From Limnochorda sp. L945t (GTDB taxonomy: Bacteria; Bacillota; Limnochordia; Limnochordales; Geochordaceae), in assembly GCF_035593305.1 (NCBI RefSeq), contig NZ_CP141615.1, positions 2,325,722-2,389,721 of the forward strand: a stretch of DNA of 64,000 bases. Direction: 5' to 3'. This document shows, in pieces, positions 35,586 through 44,583 of this stretch. How positions within the stretch are numbered: position 1 is the first letter of the stretch; each line of letters begins with the position of its first letter. Under the pieces are notes generated by a model. That model searched no databases. It worked only from the letters and a program-made list of their open reading frames with translations, and was not told where the DNA came from. The translations under genes were made by a program, and so were the position numbers.

Positions 35586-36435
35586 TCACGCATGCTGAGA
35601 AAGCTCAGCAGGGAGCCTCACCCCTCGGCCGCGTAAGTAATCCCGCATCGCCTCCACGTCCTTGAGGTGGCGGTCGATGAGGTCCAGATACTCATATACC
35701 AGCGTCTCGCCCCGCCCCAGCGCCCGGGCCATGAGGTGGGGCGGAAGTCCATAAAGGTGAAGGATGAGGACGCTGTCAAGCGCCTTCAGGTAGGCGTCCA
35801 CCGAGCGGGGGTGGTGGTAGGTGTGCCGGGCGATCTCCAGCACCGACATCCCTTGCAGGTGAAGGCGTACGATGAGGTCCTTGTGGGTCAGCGTACGGCC
35901 CATGTCCAGCACCGTGCCGGGACAGGGCAGGATCACCTGGTGCTGGCGCTGGTACCAGTCCAGCGCCCGGGAGACCGTAGCAATCGACGTCAGGAAGATC
36001 CACTGCAGCTCCATGTGCGACAGCAATCCGTCCTGCGTGTAGGCCTCCACCATCGCTCGCCCCATCCGCCGGCCGTAGCGCTCCATCAGCTCCTCATAGG
36101 TCCGGGGTGGGTAGTGGCGAAGCCGCTGGCTCTCTTCGCCCGTCACCCAAGTGACGACGACGGGCGCCAGGGGTTGGTAGCGCGTCGGCTGCCAGAGGCT
36201 GCGCCCGCTGTCCACATGCATGGCCGCCAGCGGCATCTGACCGGTCGCCAGTACGGAGACCCGCGGGCAAAAGCGCGCCCGCAGGCTCATCAGATCGAGC
36301 AGCATGGGCTCCTGGACAGCCGGTGCAATCCCTGCTTCGTTGCGCAAGAAGGCCTGGAGCTTGGCCAGCGTCTCCGGGGACGTTGTCCCACGGCGTGTGG
36401 AATTTGAGTAGCGCCTCCGGGCTCGTTTTTTTCAC
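35586..36435 (-). pseudogene. DUF1670 family protein, probably frameshifted near its N-terminus
   Basis: The frame 35586-36347 gives about 254 residues with the DUF1670 C-terminal helix-turn-helix region (LDMGRTLTHKDLIVRLHLQG, VLEIARHTYHHPRSVDAYLK, YGLPPHLMARALGRGETLVYEYL). Upstream, the frame from GTG 36435 (KKTSPEALLKFHTPWDNVP) has better codon bias but is out of phase, so a frameshift near 36380 is likely. Otherwise the gene would start at TTG 36347 or be truncated. DUF1670 proteins are of unknown function and often lie near transposases. The 5' end abuts the stop of the IS256 transposase fragment, so the insertion may have removed the real start. Confidence 0.6.
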
Positions 36436-36697
36436 CCGGTAGCGAGCGCAGGGTTGGGCATGGCTACTTCCGCTCCGATGGCTCGGCGTAGCGCGGTCTG
36501 CAGCATCGGAATGAGGCGATGGCCCCGAATCCGTCGAAAGCCTGCCTCCGCTGCCAGCAGACCCATGCCCACCCAGTGCTCGGCCTGCCGGCCCGACGTC
36601 CAGCGCTTGACCCGACCCACCTTGGTGCGGACCACCGACAGCGCCGACTCCACCGTGTTGGTGGGGGCCAGCGACATCCGCAAGAGGCCCGGAATGC
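36432..36697 (-). pseudogene. C-terminal fragment of the split IS256-type transposase
   Basis: The fragment reads IPGLLRMSLAPTNTVESALS, VVRTKVGRVKRW, EHWVGMGLLAAEAGFRRIRG to ALATG*. SLAPTNTVES is the C-terminal IS256/Mutator signature with the last acidic catalytic residue. It is the missing end of the 40307-41316 ORF: removing the 3.6 kb element between them joins LHRLGIP to GLLRMSL in frame. Confidence 0.85.
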
Positions 36698-36796
36698 TCT
36701 TGCGTTGATCGCTATTTGACCACGGTCGTCGCGCGCTCAATGAGCGGGAAAGGGCGTGGTTCGCCGGATGGTCCGGCCTGCCACGCCCTTGGGATG

Positions 36797-37018
36797 TCAG
36801 GGTAGCCGCCGAGGGTTGACCCTGCCGTCGGCCTCCTGGGCCTCCGCCCAAAGCAGCACCAGGCGGACGGCCAGCTCGTAGATGGCGCGGCGGGACGCAA
36901 AGGCCAGCACTACCTCCCGCGGGCCGTCGACCAGGCGTAGCCGGGCCAGGGCCCCGGCCCGGCGGGTGCAGCGCCACTCGACGGTGATGGGCGTGGTCCC
37001 CCGCAACCAGAGCCGCAT
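36797..37018 (-). CDS. Small transposon-encoded protein
   Basis: A 73-residue basic protein (MRLWLRGTTPITVEWRCTRR, ending GRVNPRRLP). GGGAGGTGA lies about eight bases before ATG 37018, overlapping the end of the ATPase gene region, so it is co-transcribed with it. No domain is recognised. It is the last gene of the four-gene transposon and may be an accessory or targeting subunit; that is a guess from position. Confidence 0.5.
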   Translation of the reverse strand: MRLWLRGTTPITVEWRCTRRAGALARLRLVDGPREVVLAFASRRAIYELAVRLVLLWAEAQEADGRVNPRRLP

Positions 37019-37023
37019 CACGC

Positions 37024-37845
37024 TCACCTCCCGGTGCCCTGGGGTGCCTGCCACTCGGCGGCGATGACGGCCTCGACCAGCTCATGGTCGACCACGCGCT
37101 CCTGCCGGGCCGCCGCCGCCATGAGGCAGAGGTGGGCGAGCTGGTTGATGGGCCGCGGTAGCCCGTTGCAGGCCCGGTGGATGTGGTCGAGGGCCTTGGC
37201 GGTGAACAGCTCCTGGTCGGCCCCGGCCAGCTTCAGGTGGTGACGGATGTAGGCGGCCGTCTCCTGGGGCGAAAAGCCGCCCAGGTGGTAGCGGAGATCG
37301 ATGCGCTGGGCAAGCGCCTCGGCAGAGCGAAGGGCCAGCCGCTCCGCAAGCGCCCGGGTGCCGCACAGCACCAGGGCGAAGGGGGCGAAGGCGTCGCATT
37401 CGTAGTTGAGCAAGCCCCGGATCTCCTCCAGCATGGCCGGGCTCAAGAACTGCGCCTCGTCCACCAGCAGGACCGGCGTGCGATGCTGCGTGCGCCAGCG
37501 CTCGGCCAGCGCCTCCCGGGCAAGCTTCTTGAGCTTAGGCAAAGCGTGCGGCGCATCGAGTCGCAGGGCGTCGAGCAGGCTCTGGAAGAAACTGCGGGGG
37601 GTGAAGGCGACGTCGGCCAGATAGACCACCTCGTAGCGGGTGGCATCGAGCTCCGCCTTGAGCCGCCGCAGCGCGGTGGACTTACCGGCACCCACCTCCC
37701 CGGTCAGCACCATCACCCGCCGGCGCTCGGCGACATAATGCAGCCTCGCCAGGGCTTCGCGGTGGGCCTGGGAGGGAAACAGTTGCTCGACGGGGATCTC
37801 CCGGGCAAAGGGTGTGGCGGTCAGGCCGAAGTGGGCTTCAAACAT
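37024..37845 (-). CDS. ExeA/TnsC-like AAA ATPase of the transposon
   Basis: A 273-residue AAA ATPase. MFEAHFGLTATPFAREIP is the ExeA-family opening. Walker A is LTGEVGAGKSTALRRL, Walker B PVLLVDEAQFLSPAML, and sensor 1 LVLCGTRAL, followed by an arginine-rich IDLRYHLGGFSPQET and a lid helix. In Tn7-like and Tn552-like elements such ATPases (TnsC, TniB) select target DNA and activate the DDE transposase. The ATG overlaps the transposase stop by 8 bases, with GGAGG upstream. It appears intact. Confidence 0.85.
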   Translation of the reverse strand: MFEAHFGLTATPFAREIPVEQLFPSQAHREALARLHYVAERRRVMVLTGEVGAGKSTALRRLKAELDATRYEVVYLADVAFTPRSFFQSLLDALRLDAPHALPKLKKLAREALAERWRTQHRTPVLLVDEAQFLSPAMLEEIRGLLNYECDAFAPFALVLCGTRALAERLALRSAEALAQRIDLRYHLGGFSPQETAAYIRHHLKLAGADQELFTAKALDHIHRACNGLPRPINQLAHLCLMAAAARQERVVDHELVEAVIAAEWQAPQGTGR

Positions 37846-39211
37846 CGGGCATCGCCTCCGGCTCATCCACGAGACTCAGGCGCAGGGGGGAGAGGGCTCG
37901 GGCCTGGCGCTGACGCCGGCGCTGGACCAGGAGCTCCAGGTAGGGGATCGATGGCGCGACCGGGCGGCTCGGCTCGGGGTGGTGGACCCGGTCGAGGCCG
38001 CGGTAGACGGGGTGGGCCAAATCGAGCGGGACGGCGTCGCCCGCGTGGCGGCCCTCGATGAACAGGCTGAGGCGCTCCAGGTGCAGCGGATGGAAGCGGA
38101 TCTCAACCTTGCGGCCTTCCAGGCCGGGCGGCGCTTCGTAGCGGTTGCCGTCGAAACGAAGACACCCGGTCTTGTCCACCCGGCGCACCCGCCGCCACAA
38201 AAAGACGTGGGCCAGCTTTTCGGCCGAGACGGTCCGGCGCGCCTGCAGGCGGGCGAAGCGGACCGCGGGTGCCTCGCCCGTCTCGGAGTGCACCTGGACG
38301 TGGTACGCCTCTTCGATCCAGGCCGCAAGCCTTTCGTTGAGGGCCGCCAGGTGCGGGACGGGGTGGTGGGAAAGCTCCCGCAGGAACTGGTCTTGCAGGG
38401 TTTCGAAGAAGCGCTCGATCTTGCCGCGGCCCTCGGGATGGCCGGGCGTGCCGGAGATGTGGCGGATGCCGAGCTCCGCGCAGGCCCGGGTGAACACCTC
38501 GGCCTGGAAGATGAGGCCCCGGTCGACGTAGACCCGCCAGGGAAGGCCCCGGCGCAAGAGGGCCTGCTGGAAGCACAGCTCCAGGGCGTAGAGGTCTTCG
38601 GCCCAGAAAAACTCGGCATGGGCCACCAACCGGGAGTGGTCGTCGAGGAAGGCCAAAAGATACGTGCGCCGCATGCGGCCCGGCTGGAAGGGATCCGGCA
38701 GCGCCGGACCGGGCGTGGCATCGCCCTGCCAGAGGTCATTGGGGGCCCTGGCTTCGAAGCGGCGCAAGCCCGGCTTGGGGGGAAGGACCCGCTGGCTGAG
38801 GCCTTCCCGGTGCAGGTGGCGCCAGAGGGTGTTGGGCTTGAGGGTCTGCGGGGCCACCAGCCCGGCCGCCTCCAACAGCCGCACCACCTGGGGCAGGCTG
38901 CGGGCAGGGTCCTGACGTTTGAGGGCCTTGGCCTGCTCCAGAAGCTCGGGGGTGACGACCCGCACCGATCCCCGGTCCCGCCGCAGGGCCGGCCGCAGGG
39001 CCTCCAAGCCACCGAGTCGGTAGCGGCGGACCCACCGGCGCAAGGTCGGGGCACTCACGTGCACCCGCCGGCCGTCCGGGAGCAAATGCTGGCGAGCGAG
39101 CACATCCTGCCGCCAGCGGCGCTTCTCCTCCGCGTCGGCCAGGGGATCCAACAGCGGGGCGATGAGCGAGTAGCGAAACAACGCCAGCGTGTCGTCGGGC
39201 CAGGAAGCCAC
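37838..39211 (-). CDS. DDE-type transposase (Mu/Tn552 integrase core)
   Basis: A 457-residue transposase. N-terminal helix-turn-helix: SAPTLRRWVRRYRLGGLEAL. An HTH_29-like second DNA-binding region follows (SLPQVVRLLEAAGL). The rve catalytic core has LWQGDATPGPAL (Asp1), VYVDRGLIFQ (Asp2) and EGRGKIERFFETLQ (Glu). The Mu-type C-terminal beta-barrel follows, with VDKTGCLRFDGNRYEAPPGL. GTG 39211 is chosen because GGGAGGATG precedes it by about eight bases and the HTH follows soon after. It is coupled to the ATPase downstream. It appears intact, although its upstream zinc-ribbon partner is broken. Confidence 0.85.
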   Translation of the reverse strand: MASWPDDTLALFRYSLIAPLLDPLADAEEKRRWRQDVLARQHLLPDGRRVHVSAPTLRRWVRRYRLGGLEALRPALRRDRGSVRVVTPELLEQAKALKRQDPARSLPQVVRLLEAAGLVAPQTLKPNTLWRHLHREGLSQRVLPPKPGLRRFEARAPNDLWQGDATPGPALPDPFQPGRMRRTYLLAFLDDHSRLVAHAEFFWAEDLYALELCFQQALLRRGLPWRVYVDRGLIFQAEVFTRACAELGIRHISGTPGHPEGRGKIERFFETLQDQFLRELSHHPVPHLAALNERLAAWIEEAYHVQVHSETGEAPAVRFARLQARRTVSAEKLAHVFLWRRVRRVDKTGCLRFDGNRYEAPPGLEGRKVEIRFHPLHLERLSLFIEGRHAGDAVPLDLAHPVYRGLDRVHHPEPSRPVAPSIPYLELLVQRRRQRQARALSPLRLSLVDEPEAMPDV

Positions 39212-39372
39212 CGAAGCATCCTCCCTGCCGTGGGGTTTGCTTCCAGTCTCCGGCAGCCGGGCTCTCTCCGGGAAGGCGCCAGGGTTTGGGGAGTCCGGCC
39301 GCCCGGCCATAGGCGAACAGATGATCGATTCGAGCTGGGCGCAGGCGACCCCGCCCCCGGCCCCTGACGCTT

Positions 39373-39973
39373 TCAAAGCCAGGCCGGGTCGCCCTGGAGC
39401 AGGAGGTTGACGATGTCCAGAAGGCCGGCCGCTGTCGGCCCAGGATGCGCCTGCCTCACTCCCTGGCGCAGTGTCTCGGCGAAGTCCAGGCACGCTCCCA
39501 ACGGGTCATCTTTGGGCGGATGCAGGACCGGCGGGCCGGTCGGAAGGCCCCCGGCCAGCTCCCCCCACCATTCCTGCAGCCGAGCCAAGACTCCCGGCGC
39601 CTCGGCTGAGGCCTTCGCACCAGCCGGCGCACGGTGGCCACCGAACGGCCTACCGACTCGGCCAACGCCCGCCACGACATCCCCGCCGGCGCCCCTGATA
39701 GAGGCGCTGGCGGACGGTGCTGAGCAGGCTCTGGTAGGGGCGCAGGAAGCTGGGCAAAAACGAGACCGTCCGGCTGCAGCGCGAGCAGCGCCGCCGGCGC
39801 ACCGGAATCCGCTGATAGCCATCCGGCCCGGTCTCGTCGGCGCCGCGCGGATAGCACCCGTGTCCCCACAGCCGCCCGCCGCAGGCCGGACACAGGCGGG
39901 GCAGTCGCAACCGGCCCGCTTCTTCGGCGGCCAGGTAGGAGCGCACGTCTCGTCCGGCGAAAATGGAGATCAC
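39373..39973 (-). pseudogene. Zinc-ribbon/HTH transposon protein (DUF6431-like), frameshifted
   Basis: From GTG 39973 the frame gives VISIFAGRDVRSYLAAEEAG, then a zinc ribbon (CPACGGRLWGHGCYPRG ... RRRRCSRCSRTVSFLP) and PSFLRPYQSLLSTVRQRLY. It then shifts. Continuations appear in other frames: MSWRALAESVGRSVATVRRL, an HTH, and later FAETLRQGVRQAHPG to the stop at 39373. At least two frameshifts are needed. The intact family member would recognise DNA ends or targets for the element. The naming as DUF6431-like is from memory of this gene order and moderately sure. Confidence 0.6.
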
Positions 39974-40306
39974 CAAACCGGCTCCCTCCCCTCCGGGGAG
40001 GCTCCCGATCCGGGAGAGCAGCCGGGGGCGGTGTTGGGGGAGCATCCCGGGCGTGGCGACCGCGTAAGGGGTGCTCCCGCTTGTTTTCCCTCCCTGACCG
40101 CCCCGCTTTCGCTGCCGGGATCGGGCGGCAGCGAGGCACGGGCCTCCCCGTGGCCCGACGATTCGGCTCCCCGGCCGCTCTTCCTTCCAAAAAGCCCCAG
40201 CCCCCGGCTAGCCGGCGGGCTGGGAGGGGTCCTCCTGGAGATCCCGATGCTCAAGCTACGCGCGAGATCCACCCTCTGAAGCGCTCAAAAAGCGGGAGGC
40301 GCGAGA

Positions 40307-41316
40307 GGAATGCCCAGCCGGTGCAGGGTCAACGTTTCGTCCAGCCCCTCGCGCAGACTGTCGGCTGCCCCTGGATGCTCCATCTCGAGCTGGTCGGCCA
40401 GACGCTCCAGCGCCGCCTTGGCGACCGCGTAGTCCGGCTCCCGGTAGGCCTGACCCAGCTTGCGGGCCACCCAGGCCTGGGCCGACTCGGGCAGGTGGTC
40501 CAAGACGTTCGTCTTCTTATGAACCTGACACCGCTGGACGAGAGCCTGCTGGCCAAACACGGCTCGCACGGCCGCCCGAAGCGCTTTGGCACCATCCATC
40601 ACCACCAGCAGCCCCTGGTCGTAGCGCAGGTCCCGTTCGACCAAGTCCTGCAGCAGTCCCTTGACCACCGCTTCGTTTTCCGTGGCCCCTTCCCGCAGGC
40701 CCAAGAGCCGCTTGTGCCCGTCGGCATCGATGCCAAGGACCACCACCACGGTAGACTCGCCCAGCCGCACCCCATCCACGACCAAGACGACGATGGGCCG
40801 ATCCTCCAGCCGCTCGGCCAGGCGCTCCTCCAGCAGCTGCCGCATGGCCTGGGTGAAACGAACGCTGATACGGCTCCGGGAGACACCCTTGCCCGGGAGC
40901 TCCTCGACCCCATCCAGGGTCGCCCGGTAGCCCCGGGTCGACACCCCGTGCAGCAGCCGGGCCATCACCGCTTCCGTCAAGCAGTCGTCCTGCTGGGCCC
41001 ACAGGTAGGTGTCGAGCACCACCTCCTGGCCGTCCTTGGAGCGGGCCCGTGGACGCTCGATACGTACCTTGCGGCCGAGCACCACCACCCAGCCGTGGGC
41101 GTGGCCATGGCGGTAAGCCGGACGCTCCCGGCGATGCTGCCCCTTCGGGCCTACACGCTCCGCGGTCTCGGCCTCCATCATCTCTCCCAGGGCCGCGACC
41201 GCCAGTTGCAGCACCAGCCCCGTCATGCTTCCCTTCACCTGCTCCCCGAGTCGGCGCAGGGGAAGCCGGAGGCTTTCGGGCAAGAAGGGCAGCGTTCGGG
41301 CCTTCGGACGGCCCAC
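40307..41316 (-). pseudogene. N-terminal part of the split IS256-type transposase
   Basis: From GTG 41316 the product runs VGRPKARTLPFLPESL, through an RNase-H-like core (VVLVVDGVRLGEST with Asp, LLVVMDGAKALRAAV with Asp, VQRCQVHKKTNVLDHL), to DETLTLHRLGIP. There transposon sequence takes over and a stop follows at 40285. Together with 36432-36697 it forms a 422-residue Mutator-family transposase. The interrupted copy lacks the final catalytic Glu, so it is inactive. Confidence 0.85.
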
Positions 41317-41416: not shown

Positions 41417-41460
41417 AAGACCCCGCCTTGAAAGTACCACACCATGGAAGGCGGGGTCTT
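41417..41460. repeat. 13-bp inverted repeat at the left end of the ISLre2 element
   Basis: AAGACCCCGCCTT (41417-41429) and its complement (41448-41460) enclose 18 bases and end one base before the transposase ATG. AGACCCCGCC recurs inverted at 42918-42927, so it is probably the element's terminal repeat, duplicated internally. Confidence 0.5.
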
Positions 41461-42927
41461 CATGGAGCTTGGCTTCATTGTACCCAGCGACATCCGGTCG
41501 TTCAAGGACCTGGAGCGGTTCATCGTGGCCACCGTCTTGGCCAAGGTCGCCGAGCTGGTCGAAGCGGCCGTCCGGCGCATCGACGAGAGCCTTTCGCCCC
41601 CGGGTCGCGGATGGAAGTCGGTGGGGCGTAAGACCAAGCGGGTGACAGGGCTTTGGGGGCTGGAGTACCGGCTGCAACGCCGCATGTACCGGCGGCGTCG
41701 CCCCGACGGGTCCTGGGAGGAGTGCTGCCCGCTCGACGACAAGCTGGGGCTGCCCCACAGGGAGCGTTTCAGCCCCGGGGTCCAGGAGTGGGCGGTGGAA
41801 CTGGCGACGCGCCATCCCTTTCGGGTGGCGGCGGCGATCCTGGCCGAAGCCGGGATCCCTGTGAGCGCCCAGACCATCCATCGCTGGGTGCAGGAGGCGG
41901 GCGCGAGCCGGGAGGCCGAGCAGCGCCGGGCGGTGGAGGCGATGGAGCAAACGGGCGAGCTGCCTCCCGGCGAAGGGCGTGAGGCGACGGCGGTGATCTG
42001 TGAGGTCGACGGGGTATGGGTGGCGCTGCAGCGGGAAAAGCAGCGGCGCTGGGAGTTGAAGCTCGGCGTTTTGCACGAGGGCTGGGAGCCGGAAAGCCCG
42101 GCCGGCCGGTGTTTTCGGCTGAAAGGGAAGGGTGTTTAGGGCGGGGATCTGCAGACCGAGGAGTTTTGGTCGAGGGGATTGCTGCGTTTCGTCGAGCGCT
42201 ACGACCCCCGCCGGGTGCGGCGGTTGGTGGGCAACAGCGACGGGGCTGCGTGGGCCCAAGAGGGTCGGGCGTGGCTGGGCATAGAAGAGTGGCACCTCGA
42301 TCCGTTTCATCGCAATGCGGCGCTGGAGCGGTCCTGGGGTGGCATACGCCCCTGCTGCGCCGGGCCAAGCAGGCGGCCCGGCGAGGGGATTGGGCGAGGC
42401 TGGTGGCCGTGTTCGACCAGGCGAAAGCCGACCCGGCCTGTGCCGTGGCGAAGGAGGAGCTGGAGCGGGTACGGGCTTACCTGGAGGCGAACCGGGACGG
42501 GTTGGATGACTGGCGGCTGCGCGACCAGCCGTTACCCGAGCCGGCTCGGGGGCTGGGGGCGACAGAGCCGTCGGTCCGCCACGTGGTCGCAGACCGGCTC
42601 AAGGGGAAAGCGGCCTGGTCGCGCCGGGGGGCCCACCCCATGATGCAACTGCGCTGCCTGCGCCACGAGGGGCGGCTGAAGGGGTGGCTGGCCAACTGGA
42701 CGGCCGGGAGCTGGCCGGTGCGATCGGAGCAGCCGGTGCTGGTCCGGCTGGCCCGGAAAGTTCGCCGGGGGCTGGTCGAGATCGACCCGCAAGCTTGGCT
42801 TCAGGCCCATGTGCCGATACTGAGCCACCCCGACGCCCGTCAGACGGCCACGGGCGTGGCGTTGCGCAGCCGCCTGGCCTGGGCTGCGCCGTGGGGGGCC
42901 CGGCTATAGGAGGGACTGGCGGGGTCT
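41418..42927 (+). mobile_element. ISLre2-family insertion sequence remnant
   Basis: Bounded by the inverted 10-mers AGACCCCGCC (41418-41427) and GGCGGGGTCT (42918-42927). It contains one transposase gene (41462-42909) broken by a stop and a frameshift. Target duplications were not found. Confidence 0.55.
41462..42909 (+). pseudogene. ISLre2-family (UPF0236) transposase, interrupted
   Basis: The first frame (41462-42139) gives MELGFIVPSDIRSFKDLERF, VAELATRHPFRVAAAILAE-like and VICEVDGVWVALQREKQRRW, then stops at TAG 42137. The next frame continues FWSRGLLRFVERYD, RRLVGNSDGAAWAQ, WHLDPFHRNAALERSWG. After a further shift near 42340 come RRAKQAARRGDWARLVAVF, TEPSVRHVVADRLKGKAAWS and RRGAHPMMQLR to 42909. 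The ISLre2 order of domains is complete, so only a point stop and one frameshift inactivate it. Confidence 0.8.
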
Positions 42928-43092
42928 CACAAAACCCCACCGGGGCTTGACACATACACGTCCGGTGGCAGGATTGACTAGCGTGCCTTTCCGCCTTATG
43001 GGTCTTCGGCCTCTGTGCATTTCCAGATCACGACCGGGTGGCAGAGGTCTGACCATCTTTGCTCGTGCCCATCAGTGGCTGCCCTGTGGACC

Positions 43093-44583
43093 ATGGCCCG
43101 TCGGCTCCGTTTCGTCGAGCACGTCGACGCCCGCGCCCCCAAGCGAGACCAGGGCCCCAGCGTGGGCGACTACATGCTGATCGCGGCCCTCAACCGGGCG
43201 GTGCCGCCCACCAGCAAGGCCCAGATGGGCGAGTGGTTCGAAGGCACCGTGCTGCGCCGGCTGATGCCCCATGTGCAGGCCCGCCAGCTTTCCAGCCAGC
43301 GCTTCTGGGACCACATGGACCGCCTGGACGCCGCAACGTTGCGGGCCATCGAGCGGGATCTGACCGCCCACATGGTCCGGGAGTTCGCGTTGGACTTGCG
43401 GGCGCTCGTCTACGACACGACCAACTTCGTCACCTACATCGACTCGAGCACCGATTCCGAGTTGCCCCAGCGGGGAGCGAGCAAGGCCAAGCGCTTCGAC
43501 CTCAAGCAGGTGGGGCTGGCCCTTTTGGTCACGCTGGATTTCCACGTCCCGCTCTTCCACGAGGCCTACCCGGGCCACCGGCCCGACAGCCGGGAGTTCG
43601 AAAGCGTCATCGACGAACTCGTCGCACGCTACCGGATGTTGGCCGAGCAGTGCGAGGACATCACCCTCATTTGGGACAAGGGTAACAACGCCCGCGCCAA
43701 CTACCAGCACCTGCAAGGCTATCACGTGGTCGGCTCCCTGGTCCCCTCCCAGCATCCGGACCTGCTTTCCATCCCCAAATCCGCCTTCCACCCCCTCCAA
43801 GGGCAGTGGGCCGGGCACTGGGCTTACCGGACCACCCAGACCCTCTTCGGACGGCCCCACACGGTGCTGGTGGTCTACCACGAAACGCTCTTCTTGGGGC
43901 AACTCCAGGGCATGACGACGAAGTTGAAAAAGGCGACCCAGGCCCTGCGGGAGATCAGCGCCCGCCTGGAGCGCTATCGTCAACATCGACGCGGCCAGCC
44001 GCCCACGCTGGAGAGCGTGAAACGCCAGGTCGAAGGCATTTTGAAAGGAGAGTCTTTGAACGAGTTGATTCACATGGACCTCCGCCTGGAAGAGGGAGGG
44101 CCCGCCCTCCACTTCGCAATCGACCATGCCGCCTTGCAGGCGCTGGCGGAGCGGCGCTTTGGCAAGACGCTGTTGTTCACCGACCAGGCCAGCTGGACCG
44201 ACGAGCAGATCGTGGCCGCCTACCGGGGCCAGGCGCACATAGAGCGGGCCATCCGCCAGATGAAAGACCCCCACTTCGTAAGCTGGCGGCCCATGTTCCA
44301 CTGGACCGACGGGAAGATCCGGGTGCACGCTTTTTACTGCGTCATGGCTCTGGCCCTCGCCTCCCTGCTGCTGCGGGAGGTGCACCGCCGGGCCCAGGCC
44401 CGGGGGATGGAGCCGCCGGTCGACAGCATCCCCGAACTGCTGGGCACGCTGGGAGCCATCTACGAGGTGGCTCACCTCTACCCGCCCGCGTCCAAGATGC
44501 CCGGCCATCTGACCCTCTCCGAGATGACCCCCCGCCAGCGGCTCCTCTTCGACCTGCTCGAGCTGGCCGCCCTGGCCCCCTGA
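43093..44583 (+). pseudogene. IS1634-family transposase, 5'-truncated
   Basis: An open frame gives about 497 residues: MARRLRFVEHVDARAPKRDQ, SVGDYMLIAALNRAVPPTSK, LVYDTTNFVTYIDSST (catalytic Asp), LIWDKGNNARANY (Asp) and TDEQIVAAYRGQAHIERAIR (Glu), ending LLFDLLELAALAP. IS1634 transposases normally have about 90-100 more N-terminal residues. Upstream sequence does not supply them, although VAALWT just before the ATG is still family sequence. The catalytic core is complete, but the missing DNA-binding end makes function unlikely. Confidence 0.75.

What the first reader, a model, noticed from the sequence alone, without database searches (positions are those of the whole stretch)
36691..40313. 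Nested transposon with readable ends: Tn7/Tn552-like element splitting an IS256 gene
Removing 36698-40306 and one GGAATGC copy restores the IS256 transposase in frame. The ends share TCTyGCG-n5-CGCTwTTTGAsC. This fixes the boundaries of a four-gene element whose DDE transposase and TnsC-like ATPase are intact.
Basis: seen in the sequence. Interest (0 to 1): 0.65.

Follow-up and report, generated by a model that had tools for sequence, protein, structure and literature searches.

The report
Small transposon nested inside IS256
A 3.6-kb jumping DNA element has landed inside another one; its exact ends and a 7-base target duplication are confirmed by sister copies, and it belongs to a widespread but apparently unnamed group that pairs a DNA-joining enzyme with a TnsC/MuB-like helper ATPase and a zinc-ribbon protein of unknown role.

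Summary
Window 36698-40306 (3,609 bp) is an insertion in an IS256-family transposase gene, flanked by GGAATGC. Three uninterrupted IS256 relatives in the same genome align across the joined flanks with no gap at the junction and overlap by exactly 7 bp. Sister elements in two related genomes share the boundaries; one has an independent 7-bp duplication (GGACGAC). All sister ends begin TGT, whereas the window copy begins TCT at both ends. The four genes are real and under purifying selection: transposase (rve + Mu-transpos_C), AAA+ ATPase, DUF6431 and a small ORF; DUF6431 is split across frames in every sister copy. "Tn7/Tn552-like" is only partly right. The machinery works like Tn552/Mu/Tn7 (ATPase model matches MuB and TnsC best), but no TnsA, TniQ or resolvase was found, and the transposase lies outside the Mu/TniA/Tn552 clade, nearer IS481 profiles. 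The element belongs to a broad family (DUF6431, transposase, ATPase; about 3.0-3.7 kb; TGT...ACA ends; mostly 6-bp duplications); its transposase is in 67 of 398 sampled genomes of the phylum. I found no paper describing it; ISfinder could not be searched.

The parts
36691..36697 (.). Left copy of the 7-bp target-site duplication GGAATGC
   Evidence: Sequence; 7-bp overlap of half-matches to intact IS256 copies
36698..36721 (+). Left terminal inverted repeat TCTTGCGTTGATCGCTATTTGACC; sister copies begin TGT
36735..36749 (-). Candidate second transposase-binding site near the left end (TCCCGCTCATTGAGC, inverted)
   Evidence: Motif scan of the element: third-best site after the two terminal ones
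36749..36791 (.). Hairpin at the 3' end of the gene block, possible terminator
36797..37054 (-). Small ORF (85 aa), no family match; present in sister copies and weakly in L065
   Evidence: pN/pS 0.26-0.35 in its own frame; homologs
37024..37866 (-). AAA+ ATPase (TnsC/MuB-like; likely start at 37845)
   Evidence: Pfam AAA_22 E 6.6e-25; structure matches MuB Z 18.1, ShCAST TnsC Z 17.4; pN/pS 0.06-0.15
37838..39211 (-). DDE transposase (HTH, rve, Mu-transpos_C); GTG start preceded by GGAGG; D258, D324, E360 in the numbering of the 551-aa ORF 37838-39493
   Evidence: pN/pS 0.10-0.18
39373..39680 (-). C-terminal (HTH) part of the DUF6431 protein, in a different frame (-1) from the zinc-ribbon part; broken by a further 1-nt deletion in the window copy
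39650..40045 (-). DUF6431 zinc-ribbon ORF
   Evidence: Pfam PF20020 E 4.3e-9; pN/pS 0.23-0.55
40196..40224 (-). Subterminal G+C-rich hairpin followed by a T run, reading towards the genes (may block read-through from outside)
40283..40306 (-). Right terminal inverted repeat TCTCGCGCCTCCCGCTTTTTGAGC; sister copies begin TGT
40307..40313 (.). Right copy of the 7-bp target-site duplication GGAATGC
36432..36697 (-). C-terminal part of the interrupted IS256-family transposase gene (host of the insertion)
40307..41316 (-). N-terminal part of the interrupted IS256-family transposase gene
   Evidence: Pfam Transposase_mut E 4.5e-38; 84% identical to intact copies

Best explanation
The feature is an autonomous-type transposon that inserted into an IS256-family transposase gene with a 7-bp staggered cut. 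It belongs to a family whose core is DUF6431 protein, DDE transposase (IS481/Mu-like core) and AAA+ ATPase. Inferred mechanism: the transposase binds the terminal repeat and further sites inside each end, frees the 3' ends at the terminal CA, and joins them to target DNA that the TnsC/MuB-like ATPase has bound and presented. Gap repair leaves the 7-bp duplication. With no TnsA-type nuclease and no resolvase, it probably moves replicatively or by copy-out, and any cointegrates depend on host recombination. Shown: boundaries, duplication length, gene content, selection on the genes, family spread, ATPase fold match. Inferred: binding sites, target-selection role of the ATPase, replicative route, role of DUF6431.
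For: Ends and empty-site comparison; sister copies with the same ends and an independent 7-bp duplication; domains; pN/pS well below 1 for transposase, ATPase and small ORF; ATPase model nearest MuB and TnsC; at least 75 of 93 transposase matches in the phylum have DUF6431 upstream on the same strand; 18 exact duplications of 5-6 bp directly outside TGT...ACA in distant members; repeated motifs at the ends.
Against: The window copy has TCT...AGA instead of TGT...ACA at both ends, so it may no longer be mobile. The 7-bp length rests on two clean insertions; distant members give 6, sometimes 5. Full copy L050 has no duplication. No transposition was observed. The Orc/Cdc6 fold also scores high, so the fold match alone does not fix the ATPase's role.
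Confidence: 0.85

Rival explanations
1. It is a true member of the Tn7 or Tn552/Tn5053 families that has lost its TnsA, TniQ or resolvase genes.
For: Same transposase and ATPase domain architecture as Tn552 p480/p271; ATPase fold match to TnsC and MuB; Tn552 also makes 6-bp duplications (PMC3276174).
Against: Transposase tree puts MuA, TniA and p480 in a separate clade (96/96); the ATPase has no significant BLAST match to Tn552 p271 or TniB and TniB Pfam is below cut-off; many phylogenetically spread members share the same triad with DUF6431, so the missing genes are not a recent loss.
Confidence: 0.12
2. It is an IS481-family insertion sequence that carries an ATPase and DUF6431 as passenger genes, with the transposase acting alone.
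For: Best NCBIfam match is IS481 (185 bits); IS481 ends and mostly 6-bp duplications are similar (PMC10045372; TnRErm46 IR begins TGTTGCG, PMC6794481).
Against: Score is below the IS481 cut-off of 224; the transposase has a Mu-transpos_C domain; the ATPase is kept in nearly all examined members and is under the strongest purifying selection.
Confidence: 0.2
3. The matching flanking 7-mers are partly chance, with a true duplication of 5 bp (AATGC) and 'GG' belonging to the right end of the element.
For: Right flanks of all three full copies start with GG.
Against: Other right ends (L115, L118, L120) are not followed by GG; distant members have duplications directly outside TGT...ACA; two chance GG matches on the left would be needed.
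Confidence: 0.07

Closest known systems
Tn552 (p480 + p271, staphylococcal)
   Same: HTH-rve-Mu-transpos_C transposase of about 450-480 aa next to an AAA_22 ATPase of about 270-280 aa; 6-bp duplications reported for Tn552
   Different: Tn552 has a resolvase and about 120-bp inverted repeats (PMC3276174) and no DUF6431; transposase identity 24%, ATPase without significant match
IS481 family (e.g. ISRe46/TnRErm46)
   Same: Nearest transposase profile; TGT ends (TnRErm46 IR begins TGTTGCG); mostly 6-bp duplications
   Different: Typical IS481 has one gene and no dedicated ATPase; score is below the family cut-off
Tn402/Tn5053 (TniA, TniB, TniQ, resolvase)
   Same: DDE transposase with Mu C-terminal domain plus AAA+ ATPase
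   Different: No TniQ, no resolvase; ATPase below the TniB cut-off
Tn7
   Same: TnsC-like ATPase fold; TGT...ACA ends in sister copies; several candidate binding sites in the ends
   Different: No TnsA, TnsD or TnsE found; no attachment-site targeting seen
Phage Mu (MuA/MuB)
   Same: ATPase model's best structural match is MuB; rve and Mu C-terminal domains
   Different: Not a phage; 5-7-bp duplications in this family; MuA groups with TniA and p480
DUF6431/transposase/ATPase triad on the Planococcus lenghuensis plasmid (NZ_CP019641)
   Same: Same three genes in the same order; a member of the same group
   Different: 35-42% protein identity; annotated only with generic names

Membership tests
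DUF6431-transposase-ATPase elements (group described here) | DUF6431, DDE transposase and AAA_22 ATPase in that order and on one strand | tested here: met
DUF6431-transposase-ATPase elements (group described here) | TGT...ACA ends with 5-7-bp target duplication | tested here: inconclusive
   Duplication 7 bp; sister copies TGT...ACA; the window copy itself has TCT...AGA
Tn552 | p480-type transposase in the Tn552/TniA/Mu clade | tested here: not met
   Separate clade 96/96
Tn552 | Resolvase gene and long (about 120 bp) inverted repeats | tested here: not met
   No resolvase among the main ORFs of the element; similarity between the ends limited to about 24 bp
Tn7 | TnsA endonuclease and TnsD/TniQ target selector | tested here: not met
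   Main ORFs scanned; none matches
Tn7 | 5-bp target duplication | tested here: not met
   7 bp; the 5-bp value for Tn7 is from general knowledge
Tn5053/Tn402 | TniB-type ATPase and TniQ | tested here: not met
   TniB 17.5 bits against cut-off 22.4; no TniQ
IS481 | Transposase above the NCBIfam IS481 cut-off (224 bits) | tested here: not met
   185.1 bits
IS481 | TGT ends and about 6-bp duplication | tested here: inconclusive
   Sister copies TGT; duplication 7 bp here, 6 in distant members
TnsC/MuB-type target-binding ATPase | AAA+ fold nearest TnsC/MuB | tested here: met
   Top matches MuB Z 18.1 and ShCAST TnsC Z 17.4; Cdc6 (7jgr_G) similar at 17.7
TnsC/MuB-type target-binding ATPase | ATP-dependent target DNA binding and transposase activation | not testable with these tools
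   Needs biochemistry

The most novel reading that the evidence does not exclude
This is a separate, unnamed superfamily of ATPase-assisted transposons in which DUF6431 (zinc ribbon plus HTH) takes the place of TniQ as target adaptor or regulator, and in the Limnochordales lineage is produced as two proteins or through a -1 frameshift.
Probability: 0.15. Interest if true: 0.6.

Novelty: new variant of a known kind. Interest (0 to 1): 0.35.

Why it matters
It fixes exact ends, duplication length and gene content for a common but apparently unnamed group of small transposons that pair a transposase with a TnsC/MuB-like ATPase. These elements seem to lack TnsA, TniQ and resolvase, so they are simple natural comparisons for how the ATPase helper and target selection arose in Tn7-like and CRISPR-associated transposons. 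DUF6431, a family of unknown function, is tied here to transposition.

Tried and rejected
A 5-bp duplication: rejected (see rivals). Small ORF as non-coding: my first pN/pS run used the wrong frame and gave ratios above 1; corrected, where it is constrained. A specific -1 ribosomal frameshift in DUF6431: not established, because the same-order relative L065 needs a +1 shift at the same place and its transposase is frameshifted too. Site-specific targeting: duplicated sequences in distant members show no common motif; 'GGA' at the flanks of three sister copies is too few to judge. DUF6431 structure: model too poor (pLDDT 50), no fold search made. Sequence search of solved structures with the ATPase gave only weak P-loop matches. 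Literature: one paper mentions DUF6431, once in its text (not read); searches for ExeA/IS481, Tn552/IS21/TnsC/MuB and TnsB/TnsC/TniQ gave no title or abstract describing this group. ISfinder and TnCentral could not be searched. A short transposase stretch on a Salmonella plasmid record came up as a search hit; it was not used in any analysis.

Full report
Observation. The window lies at 2,325,722-2,389,721 of a 3.31-Mb genome. The described ends are exact: TCTTGCGTTGATCGCTATTTGACC at 36698-36721 and, inverted, TCTCGCGCCTCCCGCTTTTTGAGC at 40283-40306, flanked by GGAATGC on both sides. The pattern with up to two mismatches occurs three times in the genome; the reversed control occurs zero times.

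Empty site. Three uninterrupted IS256-family copies (84% protein identity) exist in the same genome. One of them, examined in detail, matches the two halves separately with an overlap of exactly 7 bp. The joined flanks, with one GGAATGC, form one 427-codon frame that aligns over 1.33 kb at 85% with no gap at the junction, and all three copies give one continuous match. The insertion and a 7-bp duplication are therefore shown.

Sister copies. Two genomes of the same family hold copies with about 90-92% identical DNA over the aligned lengths: L050 and L051 in one, and L121, cut by a contig end, in the other. They share the boundaries that can be seen and start TGT. L051 has a clean 7-bp duplication, GGACGAC. 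L050 has no matching flanks (ggagttg/ggactgc), as expected after recombination between copies or an intramolecular event. In the window genome further end fragments start TGT. The window copy is thus the only one seen with TCT, and it has it at both ends. How both ends came to carry the same G-to-C change is not explained; it predicts poor or no mobility.

Genes. Pfam finds rve plus Mu-transpos_C in the transposase, AAA_22 in the ATPase and DUF6431 in the third gene; the 85-aa ORF matches nothing. The presumed catalytic residues are D258, D324 and E360 (551-aa numbering), with 35 residues between the second D and the E. The likely start is GTG at 39211, preceded by GGAGG; L050 and L121 have ATG there. 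Comparing sister copies, pN/pS is 0.10-0.18 for the transposase, 0.06-0.15 for the ATPase and 0.23-0.55 for the DUF6431 zinc-ribbon part, and 0.26-0.35 for the small ORF. All four behave as constrained proteins. DUF6431 needs a frame change at a conserved GGGGCKCCGGCGGGGATG stretch in all four copies; the downstream HTH part matches the C-terminus of single-frame homologs and is also constrained. The window copy has one additional deleted base that breaks this tail. Two coupled ORFs are as good a reading as a frameshift.

Family. The transposase matches 67 of 398 sampled genomes of the phylum at E <= 1e-40. Of 93 matches compared (66 genomes), at least 75 (58 genomes) have a DUF6431 match upstream on the same strand, mostly within 0.2-0.6 kb; this is a lower bound because the DUF6431 list was cut. 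ATPase genes follow in nearly all loci examined. A Planococcus plasmid carries the same three genes in order. Distant members with several copies give precise ends TGT...ACA and exact duplications: seven of 6 bp in G371, three of 6 and one of 5 in G112, two each of 6 in G048, G237 and G357, and one of 5 in G263. In G371 two full copies lack a duplication, and one of them (L143) shares ATAAGG with the neighbouring copy L144, a sign of exchange between copies. The ends of several members contain two or three repeated motifs, in the clearest case about 24 bp apart, probably transposase-binding sites. Hairpins sit just inside one or both ends in several members, including the window copy.

Comparison with known systems. 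Tn552 p480 and p271 have the same domains and similar sizes, but identity is 24% for the transposase and not significant for the ATPase, and a tree places MuA, TniA, p480 and a p480 relative in their own supported clade (several long branches, so deep placement is uncertain). The best NCBIfam profile is IS481, 185 bits against a cut-off of 224; distant members score similarly. The ATPase model (pLDDT 77) matches MuB (Z 18.1), Drosophila Cdc6 (17.7) and ShCAST TnsC (17.4). No TnsA, TniQ or resolvase was found among the main ORFs. The element therefore works like an ATPase-assisted DDE transposon but is not a Tn7, Tn552 or Tn5053 member by the tests made. Published IS481 elements have mostly 6-bp duplications (PMC10045372), and one, TnRErm46, has inverted repeats starting TGTTGCG (PMC6794481); Tn552 makes 6-bp duplications and carries a resolvase (PMC3276174).

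Mechanism and limits. Shown: boundaries, duplication, gene content, constraint, family spread. Inferred: transposase binding to the end repeats, ATPase-directed target choice, replicative or copy-out movement, DUF6431 as regulator or adaptor. The host is probably a Limnochordales bacterium such as Carboxydochorda; this rests on genome sizes, kinship and my own knowledge, and was not verified.

Verdict. It is a modestly interesting new variant of a known kind.

Noticed in passing
L116 2228-3322 and L123 8772-9865 (same genome, near 1,429,700 and 1,609,800): Two remnants share a 1.1-kb block that runs exactly from the element's TGT end (about 665 bp of it) to a 5S rRNA gene, with different sequence beyond the TGT end; one lies at a full rRNA operon, the other at an orphan 5S. 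May reflect a transposase-made deletion or a copied segment.
   Followed up: partly
window 39650-39720: DUF6431 is split over two frames at the same conserved G-rich stretch in all four Limnochordales copies; the same-order relative L065 is split near the same place but in the other direction.
   Followed up: partly
window 36698-36700 and 40304-40306: Both ends of the window copy carry the same change (TGT to TCT), unlike all other copies seen.
   Followed up: partly
L143 and L144 (genome G371): One copy's right flank and the next copy's left flank share the 6-mer ATAAGG while neither shows its own duplication: exchange between neighbouring copies.
   Followed up: no
window 41444-42909: UPF0236 (ISLre2-like) transposase gene that seems broken by a frameshift, adjoining the 5' end of the interrupted IS256 gene; the area is dense in insertion sequences.
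   Followed up: no
window 43015-44583: 522-aa ORF with a weak DDE_Tnp_1 match, apparently an intact transposase gene.
   Followed up: no
L065 3900-7500 (genome G288, same order): Degenerate relative of the element: transposase and DUF6431 both split over frames, no clear second end or target duplication found.
   Followed up: partly
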